Source: Neoarius graeffei (taxonomy: Eukaryota; Chordata; Actinopteri; Siluriformes; Ariidae). Taken from it: DNA of 64,000 bases. Each line of letters starts with the position of its first letter. The first letter of the stretch is position 1. The DNA lies in NCBI RefSeq assembly GCF_027579695.1, contig NC_083596.1, forward strand, positions 13,226,798 to 13,290,797. Reading direction: 5' to 3'. Both the position numbers and the translations under genes were made by a program. The notes under the pieces were generated by a model. That model was not told the origin of the DNA, made no database searches, and saw only the letters and a list, made by a program, of their open reading frames with translations. Below are positions 5,035-51,592 of this stretch, piece by piece.

Positions 5035-18986
<13,952 letters not shown>

Positions 18987-25213: not shown

Positions 25214-25859
25214 TATCTCGGAATGAACTTTTGCGACACTGGACTCATTTTGTAGTGACGCCCTGAATGCTAAGTAAACGTCTCTTTGCAGAGACTCCAC
25301 TATATTATATATTTTTCTTTGCTAAATGTTTTATCCGTTTATTATTAGCCTTAGATTATGTACATTGTCCACTATGCAAGTCCCTGTAAATTAGCTGTTA
25401 CTATAGAAATAACAACATATTAGAATGAGCACTAATATTAACCGATCATTTGAATTCCAGCCAGTACTAGAAAATTAAACACCACCTTCTGGCCAACTAG
25501 GCTGACTAAGACTTCGAGGTCTGACAGTTGGTGGAACTGTCAGAACATGAGACAGAGCATCACTCAGATAACAGAAAAGAACAATGGCCAATTTTCAAAC
25601 ACATCCTCATCATAAGTCAACTCATCACCACCAACACTGTCATGGATCCCACCTGACTGAGAGGTATGAAGATGTATGATTAGAAGCATATGATGTTTGT
25701 GATTAATGCTATTTAAAATTGGGGTGTGGTTTGAGCCTATATCACATAAATAAATGCGACAATTGTCACATAATCTTATAAACATAACAAATATGTACAA
25801 AGAGATGATTGGTATAATGGTGTAGCACGTAACGTTGGTGTCCTATAGTGTTGGTGTTT
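25214..25859. other. intergenic stretch, no feature seen
   Basis: No element or gene recognised. The upstream exon or exons of the His-rich gene starting at 26148 must lie here or further away, but none could be chosen. Confidence 0.35.
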
Positions 25860-26147: not shown

Positions 26148-29100
26148 CAATAATACATCAGATTGCAGCAACATTGACCATCACCTTCCTCGTAGTACCC
26201 ATAGTCATGATACCAGTGAGCATGCTGATATCCACTTTCGCTACAATTCCCACCATCATCACCATCATAAGCAACATAAGAAACAGCACAGAAGCAGTAA
26301 GACGTCCCATCAAAGAACATCACCTGTCTCATCAAACGCCTCCATGTCAGTTGCTGGTTCTTCCTTCTGCTCATCCTTCTCATCATCAGCATCATCCTCA
26401 TATTCTTCATCTTCAGGTTCACTGTCCTCCTCATTCTCAACCACTTCTGCTTCCCCTTCTTCTAATTCTTCAACTTCCTCCTCTTCCAGTTCTTCTTCTT
26501 TCTCACGTTCTTCATCTAGATCATCCTCTTGGTCTTCCGAAAGCAGTCTAGAAAATGCCAAATTTGCTTCTAAGTTCAAGAAAGGTGTTCGCCATCCACA
26601 GCATTCCCAGTCATGCACTGACATCTCCAGGCGAAGGAGAGCATTTGAGGAAGATGAAGAAGATATTGTGCCCTTGTTGAATGAGGATGGCCATGTCAAC
26701 AAGTCTGCAAATATAAAAAAGTACTTCTCTGTGAAGAAACAGTGTAAAGACACTACCAAGGAGCCAGAGTCAACTCATATTCCAACTAGAAAAAGCACCC
26801 TAAAAAAGGGGACAGGTCAGACTGAAATCTTTCGAAAGGCAAAGTCTATGGAGTTGCTGCCAATGCAGAAAAAACAGTCTGGTGAAGGAGAATTAGATGA
26901 AAAAGAAATCGAGAGGAGGAAAGCAGAAGCAAGAAAGAGCATTATGAAGGAAAAAATGAAGTTTTCTGCCTTTCTAAACGAGATCACCAGGCAGGTAATA
27001 AGTCCCTCCCGGCTACAGACTCTTGGCGTAACAGATGCCCACAGGGCTATAAGCCCTGCCAAGTCTCAAAGTTCAGAGGGCAAAGAACACAAGAAACCAA
27101 AACGTTCTTCCAATAGGTCTGGAAGTACAAATTCTGGGTCATATACTGCACCATCCCACACCAAAAAGCATTCCTCTGCAAATAAGAAGTCTAGTCAACC
27201 CTACCATCCAAACAAGACTTCCAGTTCAATCAAACACCACCATCATCGTCATCATCATCATCATCACCTGCACAAAACTGCACATAGGAATCCCAAGCAT
27301 CTTCACCATGGTGTAAACAGACACACTAGCAATAAAATTGGATCATCTAAAAGTCATAAGGCACGCAAAAAGCAACAATCTCACTCTAGTAATCATTTAC
27401 CAAATGAGACTGCCATGGATATAAAAAGGAATACACTGTGTACACACTCTCTCTCACCAATCACTCATGACCATTACAATCATGATCACTCCCATGGAGG
27501 TGATCACCATAATTCATCATCACGCTCTCGTTCTCCATCCCATCACCCCCATCGTAGAACCCACCGAAGCCCAGATCATCATTCTTTGTGTACTGATAAT
27601 CATCATTCACGTTCTCCATCACACCACCGTCACCGAAAAACACATCATCATGTCCCACATTCAGAAACTCACAATCGACACTATTCCCATTCAGAATCTC
27701 CAAACCACCATCATGATGATGACCGTAGCCCATCCTCACACAAACATTCTCCATGCTCTGAAACTGACCATCATCCTCATTTAGAATCTCACCACCATGT
27801 TCCATCTTCTCCATTGTACCATCACCATCATGGTGACCAAACACATTCGTCTCCAGGAAATAATTTTCCAAAAAGTCAAGTTTATTCCCATTCAGCACCA
27901 GATCATCATCATTTACCTTCTCCTTCATATCAACACCATCGTAGTGATGGTGATCACCGAAGCCCATCCCCACATCAGTATTCTTTGTACCCAAAAAATT
28001 ATGATCATTCCCATTCAGAATCCCCTCACCGTTCACTGTCTCCTTCACATCATGACAATCATAGTGATGGTGATCACAGAAGCTCATTCTCTTCTGCATC
28101 ACAACCCCACCATTGTGGAGATCAGAGAAGCCCATTCCCACAGCATCATTCCTCAGTCTTGAAAAGTCAAGACCATTTAGAATCTCACCAACATCGTTCA
28201 CCTTCTCCATTGCACCACCTTCATCAAGATCACAAAAATCCACCTCCACATTATTATAGTTTGAAATCAAAAACTCATGGTCACCATTCCCATTCAGAAC
28301 CTCATTACTGTGATTCTCATTCTGGATCACATCACTCATCCCTTCCAGATATTCAGTATCATTTGCCTCACACTGAATCCTATCATCCTCAGCATCATTC
28401 CACCAATAAAGATTCTCACCAGTACAACACTCCTCACCCTAATTCCCATTATTATGACAACTCACACCACTCTTCTTCTGAACTTGATCATCATGCCTTG
28501 CATCATGATTCCTCCCCTCATGAATTTCATGGCCAGCATCACTCCTCTTATCCTGATGTTCATCATAATCATTCCCATCAGCCTTCTGATAACCGTCATC
28601 ATCACTCTTATCCAGATGTTCACACCCATTCTGAAGGTGGTCTAAAGAGTCCCACTAATCATGAATCTGGTACACAATCTAACAGTGCTTACATAGACAG
28701 ACATCACCAACACCCTTCTAATTTAGGCCACCATCTTAACCATCACCACCAATCTCATTCTGGAGATCCAAAAACTCCAACACTCAACAGACATCATGAT
28801 AATCTCGATGGTCATTATTCTCATCACCACCCTCACAACCTACCCCATTCTGTAGGGCATCATCAGTATTCCCATCCAGATTCCCACAGTAGCACACACT
28901 CTGAATCCTATCACCACCATGATCATCTCCTATCTCCCCATTATCATTCTGAAGCCAAACTTCAACCCCACCAAGAGTCCAACCACCAGCATCACCATAA
29001 TAGTCCAGAGTCCCACAAAGATTCACACCACTCTAGTGAACATATTCATCAGCATTCTCACCAAAACCACAAACACCAAGAATTTCATAACCATTCCCAT

Positions 29101-32100
29101 TTAGAATCCCCCAATCATCATCATTTCCATACTGAATCCCTACATCATCCTGAACATTCCTTAACACACCAGCATTCACATTCTGAATTTCAGAAGTCTT
29201 CTCAATGTGAATGTCACAAAATGCCTTCCCACATGGAATCCCCTCATCAACATCATCACCACCAGAAACATCCAGAATCCCATCACCACTCTCATCCAAA
29301 ATCTTTCCATCATAGTTCTTATACTGAGATGTATCTTCAGGATGATGCTCCAAAATCCCACCGTCATCATGAGCATGGAGAATCCTATCCCCATTCACAT
29401 TCTAAACCTTACCACCATTCCCAAGTGGAAACCCAGCATTGTCCTGACGTTAAATCACATCATGATTGTCCAGAATCTCACCATAACCATTTTGCCACTA
29501 AGGAACATCACCATCATGGTGATGACCCCAGTTCTCTTCGCCACTCTCCAGTTGGCGAGAAAGCCACTTCCCCTTGTTCTAGCAAGTCAGATTCTTCGAG
29601 AAACTCAGGAAGTCCTATAAGCCATGATGACCAGTCAATGACCTACAAGGAAACAGCCTTGACTGCCAAAGTAAGAAGTTCAATATAACATTCAGTTCTG
29701 CAATGCAAATGCAAACTTGTTTTGTATTTGATATAGGAACTGAATAATTTAAATATAAAATGTTATCATATACTAAGCTCAAATGCACAACTATCAATAA
29801 AATACCCATTATACAATAATTAAATTATACAATTATGATTGTTCACTAATTCTCGAGTGGAGCTATTGAAATTGATTCCTTTGTAATTTTGCACAGGAAA
29901 AAGGCTCTGAATATGAGAGGATCATGTGAGTTGAATTATAAGCTGCATATACATGCGACTATATTATAATACTATAATACCACACAGCTCTCACTGAGAA
30001 AAATGCTTGGCAATACGCCCATCTTTCTTAAACATATTATTATATCCTTGTATCAAATGACGTTGTTCATCTAGCTACCCACAACCTCCCCATTTTCTAT
30101 TATCCTTCTCCATTTTCCATTATCTTTCACCACCCAGGATGCTACAGCAACAGAATGAAGACCTGCACAACACTTTGCGACAAACAGTGGTGCGTATGGA
30201 GTGCTTAGGAGCTGAATTTATTACTGAACATCATCAATTGGAATCAGCGCTACAGAGGACACGTGTGGAACTAAGCAGCATGATGGACAAGTTCACAAGG
30301 TTTTATAGCAAAATTAGCAAAATATCCTGAATTAATTTTATGCTCCAAAATGGTTAAAGCTAGACGGCCTTTTGATTTCATAAAATCGGTGAAATTTATA
30401 GCCCTTTTCCACTACCCTTTTTCAGCTCACTTCAGCTCGCTTCAGCTCACTTCAGCCCGACACGGCTCGCGTTTCGACTACCAAAAACCAGCACGACTCA
30501 GCTCGTTTCAGCCCTGCTTAGCCCCTAAAACTCGCACCGTTTTGGAGTGGGGCTGAAGCGAGCCAAACCGTGCCGACTGAGGTTGGGGGCGTGAGCAGAC
30601 ACTCCCCTGTGCACTGATTGGTGAGGAGGCGTGTCCTCACATGCCCACACACGCCTCGCGAGCGCGCTGGGATCTGTAAACACCGCAAACCCGGAAGAAG
30701 AATAATTACGAATTACGAGAATTTCTGAAGCCTTATGCGCCTCGCCTCATCAATACGCTCTTGCCAGTATCTGTCCGCGTTGTCGGTGACAACAAGCCAC
30801 AGCACCAAGACCAGCAACACTAACGACACCATGTCCTCCATGTTTATTGTTTACTACCGCTTAAAAGATCACTGAATCAGTGACATACAGAGCATCGTGG
30901 ACGAGTTCGCGGAGCGCAAGGCTCGTCATATGCCCTTCAAATAATGCGCGCAGTAGGCTATTGATGTTTTATTATGAGCCATGTACAGTATGTCGCCTAA
31001 TGTTTTTTTGTTTCTGAGTTACATGTTCGTCTGAAGGACTTGATGTACAAAATAACATAGTTGCACCCCGTAGTGTTGAAATTGGTAAACACAGTGCATT
31101 CAGTGAGGTTTGCACCGCCCTCCTTTTATTTCTGACTCTTCCTGTCACCACTCTGAGCGCTCATTCGTATGCCCTTCAAATAATGTGCGCAGTATAGGCT
31201 ATTGATGTTTTATTATGAGCCATGTACAGTATCCTAATGTTTTTTGTTTCTGAGTTACATGTTCGTTTGAAGGACTTGATGTACTAAATAACATAGTTGC
31301 ACCCGGTAGTGTTGAAATTGGTAAACACCGCAGTTGCGGACATTTTGTAGCCTAAAATGATGTTATGATAAGCTTTAATAAAGGGCCCGGTCATTTGCCC
31401 CGCCCCCGGCCCGGCTCTGACTTGTTCCGCCACTGTCACTGATGTCACTGTTTGCGCTGCTTAACGACATCACGTGACGTCCACCCACTTTCGCTAACTC
31501 CACCCAATGTGTCCACCCACTTCCAGCCAGCACGGTTCAGCGCGGTTGTAGTCGAAATGCAACTCCAACAGCCTCGCTCAGCTCGACTCAGCTCGACTCG
31601 GCACGGCACGGCTCAGCCGCGTTTGTAGTGGAAAAGCGGCATTAGTTCCCTCTGAAATTTGGTCATTGTGATATATGGTTATTTCTGTAATATCTCACAA
31701 AATATCAGGCCATTCTGTGGCTGGGAAGTTATTTAATTTGAAGAGATTCCCAAGCAAATAATGTGCATGAAATCGCGCGCAGTCAAACACAGAGGAAGTC
31801 CATGTGCGCATGCACAGGTTTACCTCCTTCTTCTTCTTTTGGGTTTTATGGCAGCTGGCATCCACAATTTTTGCATTACTGTCATCTACAAGTTTACCTT
31901 GACCGTGCACTGACAGTTACATCATTCTGTCACTAAACGAACAGCTGATCACACCGAGGTGCTCGCTGACCGCCGATATTTATTAGTTTGGTCCTGCATT
32001 TCCTTTCCTTCACAACATAACATTTTTTCTTCTCGCTTTCCATTACTGTAGTCAGTCTTTCACTTTTCATTCGCACACTCACGTCCTCCATTTTTCTCTC

Positions 32101-34059
32101 CTGTTTCAAATTTGTATCCCACAATGCCTTGCGCGAACAGGGAAACCCCACCACGTGATGCATGACGTAGTATCTTGAATTGGGTCATGGTGAAGCAGGA
32201 AAAAATGCTGGAGAATTTAGGGCCACATGGCCCTAAATTCATTAATTGTTCTATTAAAAAAAGGTAATAAAATTGGAAGTCTGTGATTTGAATTCAGTAG
32301 CTTTCGGTCCACTAAATAAAAATAATTGGGTGTCGGAAAATTCTTTTAATGACCTATGCTTGAAAAATCTGAAAGGCAGTCTGGCTTTAAATCTTAGTTA
32401 TGTGAAAAATATCTGCAGTCGTAGATTAAGAGGCAAAACAGACTTTTAAATGTAGTCTTAAATCTGTTCATCTTTTTTAGACTTCAGGCTAATTATTCCT
32501 CCATTTGTCAGACTGATGATTTCCGGGAGGATGAAGCACACTATATGGTAAACTTTTTTGTTTAAGTCTAAATGAACCGAATCAAATGTTGGGTTTGTCA
32601 TTTTCAAATATTTCAAGACTGTCTTTTTAATATCAGTTCATTTTTCTGAGGCCACAAGTTACCAGTCTATTGCAATAACCTTGGATGACCAAGTTAGGTT
32701 TTTTTTAAGTTTACTTAATTATAGGTCTTTTTTAAATCCTATATTCACTGGTTTTGTTCTTTTCACATTTCCCCTTGCCTTTTTTGAGGATGATGCCGAT
32801 CGTGAGAAACTGAACCAGCGGATCTCAGAACTGACAAAACAGCTGTCAGCTGCCAAGACAACCATTCAGAGCCTGGAGACAATTAATGTGAGAGCTTGAT
32901 GACAGGAAGATGTTAGATATTGTCTCAAACGTCACAGGCTGAATAGAAGGGGAAATTATGGAGGAGTATATAAACATAGCTTATTTCTTTATTCTAACTC
33001 ATTTATTTTTCCGCTCCCTGATTTTATAACTACCATACAGAGAGAAAGTTAAAAACTTCATAACAAGTTGCATGACTTTGGTCATATGTACAGTTACAAA
33101 TGTTAAGGTGAGGGGTCAGCTTTGCATTTGTGCCTTATTACCCATGTTCCTGTGTATGAATTTCTACAAAGTTATGAATTTGCAGCACATTTTATAATAT
33201 TGACTGATATGTTCTAGGGTGGGATTATCTTTCTTTCCTCTTACTTTTCCCACAGGTGACATCGATGCTCCAGGAAGCCCTTGTAAAACATTTTAAATCA
33301 GATGATCCCATCAAGCCATTCAAGCCAACCGTTGCACCTCCTCCATTTCAATTTATGGACAGTGACCATTATAACAAAGGCTCGGTAGCTGGAGATGAGC
33401 AATCATTGGGTCTTGTTCCAGAAGAGGATGAATCTGATTGGTCAGAAATGGGTGAGGAGGCAAAGCATTGTGCCTTGAGTCGCTTGGAGAGAGGTCAACA
33501 TGGTTGTACAGGCTTTTCTCGATGGCACCAGGAGCAGGGTCATTGGGTAAAGTCAGATCAGTATAGAAGAGGAGACGGAGATACTGAGAGTGAATCAGGA
33601 GGAGAAGAGATGACCCACACCCAAAGCCTAAAGATACCCCAGCTTCAGTTCAGCATACACCCTGAGACCTTAGTGCCTGTGGCCAGCCTGAAACAGAATA
33701 TGGATGGCCCGGTAGGAGAGGAATACCATATTCACACTGGACACCAACTAGGCTCTCCTATTTGCATCCTGTCTGCTAGCTTGGAGGACATCAACTGTAC
33801 CGACCTGCAGCAACTTGAGCATCATGGCCAGTTAAAGTGCACTACAGTTAAGATGGACCTCCACCATACACAGCAGGGCATTGCTGAAGATTGGACTGAA
33901 GATGAGCTTTCTTATAACTGGAAGATGGCAAACAAGCAACATACTGGAGATGGAAAGAAAGGGGCAGGAAGCAGTGGCTCAGAGCCAATGGCTAATCTGG
34001 AGTCAGCACAGAAGATGCTCAACCACTTCATACAGGAGGCAGAGAAGACAAAGCTATGA
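26148..34059 (+). CDS. His/Ser-rich protein with BEGAIN/TJAP1-like coiled coil, 5' end missing
   Basis: Exons seen: 26148-29670, 29897-29925, 30138-30299, 32481-32547, 32789-32887 and 33256-34059. All phases agree, giving 1560 residues to a TGA. The first exon (about 1174 residues) opens with His and then Ser runs (to about residue 145). A mixed-charge part follows with KAEARKSIMKEKMKFSAFLN. From about residue 360 it is His/Ser/Pro/Asn/Tyr-rich; in one 145-residue stretch that I counted, 42 residues are His. The next four exons match the start of BEGAIN and TJAP1: MLQQQNEDLHNTLRQTVVRM, ITEHHQLESALQRTRVEL, LQANY, then REKLNQRISELTKQLSAAKT. Those proteins are scaffolds at junctions or synapses. 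The last exon is acidic (EEDESDWSEMGEE) and unfamiliar. The assignment to that family is by hand comparison. The donor after 30299 (aag|gttttat) is weak. Upstream exons were not found. Confidence 0.75.
27238..29530 (+). repeat. low-complexity CAY-rich coding tract
   Basis: About 2.3 kb of the His-rich exon is built of cat/cac codons mixed with tca, cca, gaa and tct. A loose unit of 8-15 codons (His, Ser, Glu/Asp, Pro, Ser, His, His) recurs with many changes. It has no stop in the coding frame. The skewed composition also opens long false frames on the other strand. Confidence 0.85.
30399..31641. mobile_element. intronic DNA transposon, PIF/Harbinger-like, no transposase
   Basis: The ends tagcccttttccactac and gtagtggaaaagcggca are inverted. 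TTA at 30396-30398 and 31642-31644 gives the 3-bp duplication usual for PIF/Harbinger. The subterminal DNA repeats cagctcgactcagctc-like units on one side and cagctcacttcagctcgctt on the other. Inside, a segment of about 165 bp (30931-31095) recurs at 31168-31331. No long open frame. It lies in the intron after exon 30138-30299 of the His-rich gene. Confidence 0.8.
31645..32480. other. intron of the His-rich gene, unclassified
   Basis: No element boundary found. It contains cttcttcttttgggttttat with ggcagctggcatccac near 31830, a phrase common in fish repeats, and a 28-base palindrome centred at 32227 (gaatttagggcca, ca, and its inverse). Confidence 0.4.
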
Positions 34060-48284: not shown

Positions 48285-51200
48285 CCCCTCCTAGAACTGC
48301 CACCTTATTGTGGTGGAGGGGTTTGTGTGCTTGAATGATCCTAGGAGCTATGTTGTCGGGGGCATTATGCCCCTGTTAGGGTTTCCCAAGGCAGACAGGT
48401 CCTAGGTGACAGGCCAGACCAAGAGCAGTTCACCAAAAACCCCCTATGGAGAAAAAATCCAGGACCGTGACGTCGCCCGGTAGGACGCAGCCAGGGCCCC
48501 ACCCTGGAGCCAGGCCTGGGGTTGGGGCTCGTATGCGAGCGCTTGGTGGCTGGGCCTTTGCCCATGGGGCCCGGCCGGGCTCAGCCCGAAAAGGTGACGT
48601 GGGCCCGACCTCCTGTGGGTTCACCACCCACAGAGGTAGCAGTAGGGGTTTGGTGCAGTGTGGATTGGGTGGCAGTCGAAGGCAGGGGCCTCGACGACCT
48701 GATCCCCGGACACAGCGGCTGGCTGTTGGGACATGGAATGTCACTTCGCTGGGGGGGAAAGAGCCTGAGCTTGTGCGGGAGGTTGAGAGGTACCGGCTAG
48801 GGATAGTCGGGCTCACCTCCACGCACAGCTTGGGCTCTGGAACCCAGCTCCTCGAGAGGGGCTGGACTTTCCACTTCTCTGGAGTCGCCCGTGGTGAGCG
48901 GCGGCGGGCTGGTGTGGGCTTGCTTATAGCTCCCCAGCTCAGCCGCCATGTGTTGGAGTTTACCCCAGTGAACGAGAGGGTCGCCTCTCTGCGCCTTCGG
49001 ATTGGGGAGAGGGCTCTTGCTGTTGTTTGTGCCTATGGGCCAAATAGCAGTATAGAGTATCCGGCCTTCTTGGAGTCCCTGGAAGAGGTACTGAGGGGTG
49101 CTCAGACTGGGGACTCCATTGTGCTACTGGGGGACTTCAATGCTCACGTGAGCAACAACAGTGACACCTGGAGGGGTGTGGTTGGGAGGAACGGCCTCCC
49201 CGATCTGAACCTGAGTGGTGTTTTGTTATTGGACTTCTGTGCTAGTCACGGTTTGTCCATAACGAACACCATGTTAGAGCATAGGGGTGTCCATAAGTGC
49301 ACGTGGCACCAGGACACCTTAGGTCGGAGGTCGATGATCGACTTTGTAGTCGTTTCATCTGATCTCCGGCCCTATGTCTTGGACACTCGGGTGAAGAGAG
49401 GGGCTGAGCTGTCAACTGATCACCACCTGGTGGTGAGTTGGATCCGCTGGCGGAGGAGGAAGCTGGACAGACCTGGCAGGCCCAAACGTATGGTGAGGGT
49501 CTGCTGGGAACGTCTGGCCGAGCACTCTGTTGGGGAGGTCTTTAACTCCCACCTCCGGGAGAGCTTTTCCCAGCTTCTGAGGGAGGTGGGGGACATTGAG
49601 TCTGAGTGGACCATGTTCTCTACCTCCATTGTGGACGCAGCTGTTCGGAGCTGTGGCCGCAAGGTCTCCGGTGCCTGTCGTCGCGGCAATCCCCGAACCC
49701 GGTGGTGGACACCGGAAGTAAGGGATGCCGTCAAGCTGAAGAAGGAGTCCTATCGGGCCATGTTGACCTCCAGGACTCTTGAGGCAGCCGACGGGTATCG
49801 GCAGGCCAGGCGTGCTGCAGCTCGGGCAGTTGCGGAGGCAAAAACTCGGAACTGGGAGGAGTTCGGGGAGGCCATGGAGAAGGACTATCGGTCGGCCTCG
49901 AAGAAATTCTGGCAAACTGTCCGGCGCCTCAGGAGGGGGAAGCAGTACTCTGCCAACACTGTTTACAGTGCAGGTGGGGAGCTGTTGACCTCGACTGGGG
50001 ACATTGTCGGGCGGTGGAAGGAATACTTTGAGGATCTCCTCAATCCCACCGTCATGTCTTCTACTGAGGAGACTGAGGCTGATGACTCAGAGGTGGACTC
50101 GTCCATTACCCAAGCCGAAGTCACTGAGGTGGTTTGCAAGCTCCTCGGTGGCAAGGCACCGGGGGTGGATGAGATCCGCCCTGAGTATCTCAAGTCTCTG
50201 GATGTTGTGGGTTGTGGGCAGACTGGGGTGGTGGTCCCTCTTTTTAAGAAAGGGGACCGGAGAGTGTGCTCCAATTATAGGGGAATCACACTTCTCAGCC
50301 TCCCAGGGAAAGTTTATTCCAGGGTACTGGAGAGGAGAATTCGACCAATAGTCGAACCTCGGATCCAGGAGGAACAATGCGGTTTTCGTCCTGGTCGTGG
50401 AACACTGGACCAGCTCTATACCCTTCATAGGGTGCTCGAGGGTTCATGGGAGTTTGCCCAACCAGTCCACATGTGCTTTGTGGATCTGGAGAAGGCATTC
50501 GACCGTGTCCCCCGTGGTATTCTGTGGGGGGTGCTTCGGGAGTATGGGGTTCGGGGCTCTTTGCTAAGGGCTGTCCGGTCCCTGTACGAACGGAGCAAGA
50601 GTCTGGTTTGCATTGCCGGCAGTAAGTCAAACCTGTTCCCAGTGCATGTTGGACTCCGGCAGGGCTGCCCTTTGTCACCGGTTCTGTTCATAATTTTTAT
50701 GGACAGAATTTCTAGGCGCAGCCAGGGGCCGGAAGGAATCCTGTTTGGGAACCACAGGATTTCATCTCTGCTTTTTGCGGATGATGTTGTCCTGTTGGCT
50801 TCTTCAAGCCAGGACCTTCAGCATGCACTGGGGCGGTTTGCAGTCGAGTGTGAAGCGGCTGGGATGAGAATCAGCACCTCCAAGTCCGAGGCCATGGTTC
50901 TCGACCAGAAAAGGGTGGCTTGCCCTCTCCAGGTTGGTGGAGAAGTCCTGCCTCAAGTGGAGGAGTTTAAGTATCTCGGGATCTTGTTCACGAGTGAGGG
51001 AAGGATGGAGCGTGAGATCGACAGGCAGATCGGTGCAGCCTCCGCAGTGATGTGGTCGCTTTACCGGTCCGTCGTGGTGAAGAAGGAGCTGAGCCAAAAG
51101 GCGAAGCTCTCAATTTACCGGTCGATCTACATTCCGACTCTCACCTATGGTCATGAGTTTTGGGTAATGACAGAAAGAACAAGATCGCGGATACAAGCGG

Positions 51201-51592
51201 CTGAAATGAGTTTCCTTCGCAGGGTGGCTGGGCGCTCCCTTAGAGATAGGGTGAGAAGCACAGTCACTCGGGAGGAGCTCGGAGTAGAGCCGCTGCTCCT
51301 CCACATCGAGAGGAACCAGCTGAGGTGGCTCGGGCATCTTTTTCGGATGCCTCCTGGACGCCTCCCTGGGGAGGTGTTCCAGGCATGTCCCCCCAGGAGG
51401 AGGCCCCGGGGAAGACCCAGGACACGCTGGAGGGACTATGTCTCTCGGCTGGCCTGGGAACGCCTCGGTGTTCTTCCCGAGGAGCTGGCCGAGGTGTCTG
51501 GGGAAAGGGAAGTTTGGGCTTCCATGCTTAGACTGCTGCCTCCGCGACCCGGTCCCGGATAAGTGGAAGAAGACGAGACGAGACGAGACGAG
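48285..51592 (+). mobile_element. Rex3 LINE, full length, perfect 13-bp target duplication
   Basis: The 5' end reads cccctcctagaactgccacc with ttattgtggtggaggggttt; the 3' end is cccggataagtggaagaag with (GACGA)n. ACGAAATCAACCT at 48272-48284 and 51593-51605 is a perfect 13-bp target duplication. The stretches gcagactggggtggtggt (about 50218) and cagggctgccctttgtcacc (about 50661) match the widely used Rex3 primers as I remember them. An intact frame, intact ends and an intact duplication point to a recent insertion. Confidence 0.93.
48446..51562 (+). CDS. Rex3 endonuclease/reverse transcriptase ORF
   Basis: An uninterrupted frame of 1038 codons. Endonuclease blocks: GTWNVTSL near residue 92, GDFNAHV near 229, [18 protein letters not shown] near 293 and STDHHLV near 324. 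Reverse transcriptase: [14 protein letters not shown] near 569, [20 protein letters not shown] near 594, [11 protein letters not shown] near 678, [13 protein letters not shown] near 739 and FADDVVLL near 778. The C-terminal tail is [20 protein letters not shown]. Between YLKSLDVVG and QTGVVVPLF about 20 residues usual in this family (the LSWLTRL...WQ segment) are missing without loss of frame (DNA near 50208). If so, the enzyme would lack part of the fingers region although the ORF reads through. The start at 48446 is the first ATG of the frame. Confidence 0.9.

What the first reader, a model, noticed from the sequence alone, without database searches (positions are those of the whole stretch)
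26148..29670. A 3.5-kb His/Ser/Pro-rich exon spliced in phase to a BEGAIN/TJAP1-type coiled coil
Seen: one frame of 1174 codons without a stop, dominated by His codons, and five more exons whose phases add up exactly (1560 codons plus stop). The four exons after it resemble the N-terminal coiled coil of BEGAIN and TJAP1, which in those proteins stands near the start. A very long His-rich front part on such a scaffold is unlike the mammalian proteins as I know them. His-rich tracts suggest metal or pH-dependent binding, or phase separation (inference only).
Basis: partly seen in the sequence, partly recalled or inferred. Interest (0 to 1): 0.72.

Follow-up and report, generated by a model that had tools for sequence, protein, structure and literature searches.

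The report
His-rich fish relative of TJAP1
This is a gene, predicted to have seven exons, in a likely catfish genome; it is an uncharacterised relative of the junction and Golgi protein TJAP1 in which one of two fish duplicates has stretched the arm before its coiled coil into a histidine-rich segment of nearly 900 residues that would likely act as a pH- or zinc-sensitive sticky tether.

Summary
The 1174-codon frame and five further exons join in phase; I add a start exon (25584-25663), giving a predicted 1587-residue protein. A Silurus meridionalis protein labelled "filaggrin" matches it end to end, so the gene is catfish-like, an orthologue of zebrafish si:dkey-273o13.3. It is a paralogue of TJAP1: that gene in the same genome has matching exons (29/162/67 nt in both, then 108 against 99) and a long N-terminal exon with the same helix block. 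A long front part is therefore not new; gar, sturgeon, bichir, turtle, lizard and amphibian relatives have one. The histidine is: among 43 rows only clupeocephalan copies of one teleost duplicate have 473-878-aa linkers, 16-36% His in 12 of 17; the other 26 have 130-279 aa, at most 12.7%. A PDZ-ligand-like T-x-L end occurs in 15 of 17 of these and 9 of 9 tetrapods, but in none of 11 models of the other duplicate nor 4 of gar, sturgeon and bichir. AlphaFold orders mainly the helix block and coiled coil. Function (PDZ-docked scaffold with a pH/zinc-responsive tether) is inference; no transcript data were available.

The parts
25584..25663 (+). start exon, MANFQTHPHHKSTHHHQHCHGSHLTE plus two bases of a Ser codon
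   Evidence: ATG, donor gtatga, in-phase junction; Silurus P0046 begins with the homologous stretch, 22/27 identical
26148..29670 (+). long second exon: Ser tract, conserved N-block, then His/Ser-rich linker
   Evidence: 1174 open codons; 759/1108 aligned residues identical to Silurus
26644..27066 (+). N-block (protein residues about 193-333) with the conserved stretch EKMKFSAFLNEITRQVISPSRLQTLGV
   Evidence: profile match; helix in the AlphaFold model of relative P0055, residues 134-167
27067..29670 (+). coding stretch of the His/Ser-rich linker (868 codons here, 217 His; 878 aa to the coiled-coil profile)
29897..29925 (+). 29-nt exon, phase 0 to 2; same length in the genome's TJAP1
30138..30299 (+). 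first coiled-coil exon, 162 nt, same length in TJAP1; ends inside an Arg codon AG|A
32481..32547 (+). second coiled-coil exon, 67 nt, same length in TJAP1
32789..32887 (+). third coiled-coil exon, 99 nt; 108 nt in TJAP1 (three codons shorter here)
33256..34059 (+). last exon: end of the coiled-coil profile, C-terminal part, tail EKTKL and stop

Best explanation
The finding is a gene with seven predicted exons, an orthologue of zebrafish si:dkey-273o13.3 and a paralogue of TJAP1, whose protein is predicted to be a coiled-coil scaffold likely anchored by its C-terminal T-x-L tail to PDZ-domain proteins, with a His/Ser-rich, predicted disordered arm that would respond to pH or zinc. Shown: the in-phase exon chain matched end to end by Silurus, orthology, TJAP1 paralogy, the His-rich long linker being confined, among 43 rows, to clupeocephalan copies of one teleost duplicate, and the T-x-L tail in most of these and in tetrapods. 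Predicted: the N-block helix and the long coiled-coil helix; disorder over most of the rest. Inferred: dimerisation as predicted for TJAP1; PDZ docking; the linker as a multivalent tether that is near neutral at cytosolic pH and becomes strongly positive, or cross-linked by zinc, in mildly acidic or zinc-rich places such as synaptic or Golgi-near membranes, tuning clustering of what the two ends hold.
For: Structure and orthology. Family tree of 43 rows: window+Silurus 100/100, duplicate 'a' 19 rows 98/91, duplicate 'b' 11 rows 100/99. TJAP1 paralogy: coiled coil E 3e-27, N-block pairwise E 1.2e-8, exon lengths 29/162/67 in both; N-block profile 73.5 bits, E 2e-21 on the TJAP1 locus; that locus carries Pilt PF15453 at 538 bits. 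Linker: 12 of 17 clupeocephalan 'a' rows at 16-36% His, the other 26 rows at 1.0-12.7%. Between the two catfish linkers His (146/196) and Ser (120/161) are identical at 74.5% each against 61% of other residues (281/463) (control under evidence against). T-x-L tail: 15/17 clupeocephalan 'a', 9/9 tetrapod. Computed linker charge +4 at pH 7.6, +111 at 6.4, +156 at 6.0, with an assumed His pKa of 6.5. AlphaFold order and disorder of relative P0055. Kin: TJAP1 central coil predicted to form a homodimer, N-terminal peptide binds Mint1 PTB, Golgi and junction location (PMC10820826, passages); the 'b' duplicate is listed for a zebrafish tectal mature-neuron cluster (PMC8869500, one passage).
Against: No RNA, protein, localisation or binding data for this gene. 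T-x-L is absent from 4 of 4 gar, sturgeon and bichir models, 11 of 11 'b' models and 1 of 2 eel-like 'a' models, so its age is unsure, and a C-terminal T-x-L alone does not prove PDZ binding. With the Silurus linker shuffled 15 times the means are 51% for His, 38% for Ser and 18% for others: the gain over shuffles is smaller for His than for other residues, so this test does not single out His. Five of 17 'a' models are below 16% His as annotated. No Pfam match reached its cut-off in the two pieces scanned, residues 1-465 and 1191-1587; the middle was not scanned. Nothing tests metal binding or pH response. The structure model is a single chain of a relative without the His-rich expansion, mean pLDDT 52.8.
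Confidence: 0.5

Rival explanations
1. The His-rich linker is a by-product of relaxed selection after the teleost genome duplication: CAC/CAT-rich slippage lengthened a tolerated disordered spacer, and the histidines have no specific job.
For: Expansion sits in one of two duplicates; relaxed selection after duplication is offered as a possible reason for low-complexity gain in zebrafish (PMC3523016, passage); two short imperfect tandem repeats lie in the exon; His is not singled out over shuffled controls.
Against: His-rich in 12 of 17 clupeocephalan rows as different as catfish, minnow, grouper, sole and seahorse; few long pure His runs (longest 6 in the window linker).
Confidence: 0.35
2. 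The His/Ser-rich arm sends the protein to nuclear speckles or transcription condensates, as reported for other long His-rich stretches.
For: Long His-rich stretches matter for speckle localisation (PMC3523016, passage), and P-TEFb and DYRK1A join droplets through a His-rich domain (PMC7948595, passage); the linker has 26 SP pairs and 23 HHH starts.
Against: The relative TJAP1 is reported at Golgi and junctions; the T-x-L tail would fit membrane-cortex partners.
Confidence: 0.15
3. The His-rich exon is a separate or untranslated frame, and the working protein is the short form that starts at the coiled coil (as in P0001, 381 aa).
For: Several database models start at the coiled coil (P0001, P0003, P0005, P0006).
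Against: The Silurus model joins all exons, and identity runs through every junction; an N-block precedes the coiled coil in rows from amphibians to catfish; same phase-0 junction to a 29-nt exon in TJAP1. The search that gave the short models could only return 218-695 aa proteins.
Confidence: 0.05

Closest known systems
TJAP1 (PILT), including the copy in this genome (C7:35458064-35529068)
   Same: Coiled coil 38.7% identical over 119 aa; exons of 29, 162 and 67 nt with the same phases; long N-terminal exon with the same helix block
   Different: No Pilt match in the window protein's last 397 aa, no RKDSLTRAQ..-type tail, no KPYRKAPP-like Mint peptide on the + strand of the window; much longer, His-rich linker; T-x-L tail
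BEGAIN (C3 locus, tail matching the mouse peptide in PMC5066261; a second BEGAIN-like locus on C11)
   Same: Same coiled-coil type; three intron positions seen in the C3 copy, two in the C11 copy
   Different: No N-block in the BEGAIN stretches held, part of the C11 stretch reads N; different tail
si:ch211-276i12.4, the other teleost duplicate ('b'; C8 in this genome)
   Same: N-block, coiled coil, overall layout in 11 rows; in this genome only the 3' part was read, a stretch upstream reads N
   Different: Linker 165-232 aa with 4.8-12.7% His in 11 rows; keeps RGQSKSEE-, SLERS- and GILKN-type motifs that 'a' mostly lacks; no T-x-L tail
filaggrin, LIM domain protein A, mucin-2, knob-associated His-rich protein (database names given to relatives)
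   Same: Low-complexity composition only
   Different: Names written by sources; no Pfam match over its cut-off in the six relatives and two window pieces scanned

Membership tests
TJAP1/BEGAIN coiled-coil superfamily | homologous coiled coil | tested here: met
   38.7% over 119 aa to own-genome TJAP1, E 3e-27; own-genome hits on C7 (E 4.8e-6) and, weaker, C3 and C11, confirmed with a profile
TJAP1/BEGAIN coiled-coil superfamily | shared intron positions and phases in the coiled coil | tested here: met
   Arg-codon phase-2 intron and two phase-0 introns in TJAP1 and C3 BEGAIN; for the C11 copy only the first two were seen
TJAP1 proper | Pilt domain (PF15453) | tested here: not met
   Not among Pfam matches at E<=1 of the two window pieces scanned; genome search for PF15453 hits C7 and weakly C3, not C29
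TJAP1 proper | N-terminal Mint-binding peptide like KPYRKAPPEHRELR | tested here: not met
   No such pattern in the + frames of the window; present in own TJAP1; a similar RRKSYKKAQ start in reptile relatives. An exon upstream of the window is not excluded
si:dkey-273o13.3 orthologue group | falls in duplicate 'a' clade | tested here: met
   Tree, 17-row clade 100/99; P0001, P0022, P0034 and P0062 carry that name, of which P0062 is in the tree
class I PDZ ligands | C-terminal S/T-x-hydrophobic | tested here: met
   EKTKL in window; 15/17 clupeocephalan 'a', 9/9 tetrapod
class I PDZ ligands | binds a PDZ domain | not testable with these tools
   needs binding assay
metal- or pH-responsive His-rich proteins | demonstrated metal or pH response | not testable with these tools
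   only composition and computed charge
spliced transcript | reads across 29670/29897 | not testable with these tools
   no RNA data held

The most novel reading that the evidence does not exclude
After the teleost genome duplication one TJAP1-type scaffold was rebuilt into a His-switch: it kept the PDZ-docking tail, dropped the old basic/serine motifs of its N-terminal part, and grew a linker of hundreds of residues whose histidines let it condense or release partners as local pH or zinc changes, for instance at synapses or Golgi-near membranes of clupeocephalan fishes, while its duplicate kept the ancestral motifs and lost the tail.
Probability: 0.25. Interest if true: 0.72.

Novelty: new variant of a known kind. 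Interest (0 to 1): 0.45.

Why it matters
It places an uncharacterised vertebrate gene, found in databases under names such as filaggrin and mucin-2, beside TJAP1 and BEGAIN. It indicates that TJAP1 of this fish itself has a long N-terminal exon with a conserved helix block, and it offers a natural pair of duplicates (one His-expanded with a T-x-L tail, one not) in which the function of a long His-rich disordered arm could be tested directly in zebrafish.

Tried and rejected
Rejected: chance open frame; overlapping dual coding of the T/I-rich frame (15 stops in frame +1 and 84 in frame +2 of the window linker); filaggrin, mucin or LIM identity (no Pfam match over cut-off in the proteins scanned); that this is TJAP1 itself (Pilt is on C7). 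PF27583, precomputed on many relatives, did not appear in the Pfam scans made here, so its meaning was not learned. The solved-structure search gave nothing useful. ARAGORN found no tRNA in the window. The profile search returned 20 proteins; the 17 with a named organism hold no mammal or bird, three are unnamed, and only 7990 candidates were scored, limited by length and shared words, so absence from mammals and birds is not proven. Literature searches: no paper held dkey-273o13, one held ch211-276i12.4, none held both histidine-rich and BEGAIN. A first attempt at cutting domains by text patterns failed for several rows and was replaced by profiles. Tree rows: the window plus 42 of the 94 proteins then held; P0001-P0045 (fragments or models that mostly start at the coiled coil), P0056, P0087-P0091 and P0093 were left out, of which P0087, P0088 and P0090 do have both domains.
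Full report
What is there. The exon 26148-29670 is open for 1174 codons, 237 His and 237 Ser among them. Markov replicas of the stretch gave at most 341 open codons in 500 trials. Five further exons join in phase to a stop at 34059. Upstream, 25584-25663 carries an ATG and a donor that meets the acceptor of the long exon in phase; the whole predicted protein is 1587 aa.

Orthology. A search with the coiled-coil and C-terminal part gave 45 proteins and a search with the N-terminal block gave 34; those with a named organism are fish, save one lizard. Silurus meridionalis P0046, 1557 aa and named filaggrin, begins with the same start exon and aligns through every junction; per-exon identities are 81, 69, 100, 94, 77, 88 and 78%. 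Four relatives bear the zebrafish name si:dkey-273o13.3 (P0001, P0022, P0034, P0062). A profile search returned 20 proteins and added turtles, further lizards, an axolotl and a frog; 17 have a named organism, none mammalian or avian, and only 7990 candidates were scored.

Tree. On 549 columns of N-block, coiled coil and C-terminal part, 43 rows fall into tetrapods (9), sturgeon plus bichir (3), gar (1), and two teleost clades that both hold eel-like fishes: 'b' (si:ch211-276i12.4 type, 11 rows, 100/99) and 'a' (19 rows, 98/91) with the window and Silurus together at 100/100. This is the pattern expected of the teleost genome duplication; the root is only a midpoint, and frog, axolotl and bichir rows are long-branched.

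Where the histidine is. Between N-block and coiled coil the 17 clupeocephalan 'a' rows have 473-878 residues; 12 of them are 16-36% His. The remaining 26 rows (two eel-like 'a' rows included) have 130-279 residues and 1.0-12.7% His. Five 'a' rows fall below 16% as annotated: Danionella 8.6, Lampris 3.4, Brachyistius 13.9, Semicossyphus 2.9 and Alosa 1.6; each has at least 25% Ile plus Thr. The window linker read one base on has 21.5% Ile and 12.8% Thr, so I read these models as partly out of frame, without having seen their DNA. Rhinichthys looks partly shifted too but stays at 17.6%.

Is the histidine kept? Between the window and Silurus linkers His is identical at 146/196 aligned places and Ser at 120/161, against 281/463 for other residues. 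With the Silurus linker shuffled 15 times the means are 51, 38 and 18%. The linkers are thus alignable beyond composition, but His is not singled out by this test.

Relation to TJAP1 and BEGAIN. In the same genome a locus on C7 carries Pilt (PF15453, 538 bits) and begins MTSAAPARKPYRKAPPQHRE, close to the human TJAP1 peptide 9-22 that binds the Mint1 PTB domain (PMC10820826, passages). Its first coding exon, as I read it, runs 1437 nt to a phase-0 donor and contains the same N-block (profile E 2e-21). Then come exons of 29, 162, 67 and 108 nt; the window gene has 29, 162, 67 and 99. The coiled coils are 38.7% identical over 119 aa (E 3e-27) and the N-blocks 27.5% over 109 aa (E 1.2e-8). A locus on C3 ends in the tail RKDSLTKAQLYGTLLN, which matches the mouse BEGAIN peptide printed in PMC5066261 (passage), and shares the intron positions; no N-block was found in the C3 stretches held. 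So a long N-terminal part with this block is shared by TJAP1 of this fish and the present family, and the His-rich form is a later elaboration. The TJAP1 exon chain is joined by me from splice signals, without transcripts.

Reciprocal motif loss. By simple patterns, GILKN-type is found in 1/17 clupeocephalan 'a', 11/11 'b', 4/4 non-teleost ray-fins and 8/9 tetrapods; SLERS-type in 0/17, 10/11, 4/4, 6/9; RGQSKSEE-type in 0/17, 8/11, 4/4, 8/9; a T-x-L end in 15/17, 0/11, 0/4, 9/9. The two eel-like 'a' rows give 1, 2, 0 and 1 of 2. Some 'a' models begin after these motifs would lie (e.g. P0063, P0064), so part of the loss may be cut models. Of the 45 proteins, 37 end in S/T-x-L (the script counted 44 and left out P0045, which ends GTWR). 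Some models may be wrong at their ends.

Structure. AlphaFold on the eel-like 'a' relative P0055 (802 aa, 42 rows) gave confident helices at 134-167 (the N-block) and 391-512 (the coiled coil), weaker ones at 516-527 and 768-778, and pLDDT below 50 for 554 of 802 residues; mean 52.8.

How it may work (inference). TJAP1's central coil is predicted to form a homodimer and TJAP1 is reported at Golgi and junctions (PMC10820826, PMC13305319, passages). The 'b' duplicate is named in a table for a mature neuronal cluster of the larval zebrafish tectum (PMC8869500, one passage). I therefore favour a dimeric cytoplasmic scaffold whose tail docks on PDZ proteins and whose linker, near neutral at pH 7.6 (+4) and strongly positive at 6.0 (+156, assumed pKa 6.5), changes stickiness with pH or zinc. 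Neutral expansion is a serious rival.

Limits. No transcripts, no DNA of relatives outside this genome, and database hits limited by length. Function is untested.

Noticed in passing
L024, C7:35458064-35459500 of the window's genome: The genome's TJAP1 appears to have a 479-codon N-terminal exon with the same helix block (EEKLKFSQFLDEITYRILSPASLNLLG), unlike the mammalian protein as I recall it.
   Followed up: partly
relatives P0047, P0048, P0051, P0054, P0062, P0064: Annotated models have Thr/Ile-rich stretches that look like the His-rich linker read one base out of frame.
   Followed up: partly
window 30393-31647: A 1.25-kb stretch with imperfect 23-nt terminal inverted repeats lies in the intron between the first two coiled-coil exons; its copy number could not be searched.
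   Followed up: partly
window 48410-51562: Open 1050-codon frame with endonuclease and reverse transcriptase domains, a LINE-like element.
   Followed up: partly
window 13200-13748: Frame matching the middle region of sororin (PF09666, 56 bits).
   Followed up: no
window 6761-7366 (-) and 8074-8589 (+): Tc1-type transposase-like frames.
   Followed up: no
window 32789: The third coiled-coil exon is three codons shorter at its start than in Silurus and in TJAP1.
   Followed up: partly
L018 (C11) and L016 (C3): Two BEGAIN-like loci in the genome, possibly teleost duplicates of BEGAIN.
   Followed up: partly
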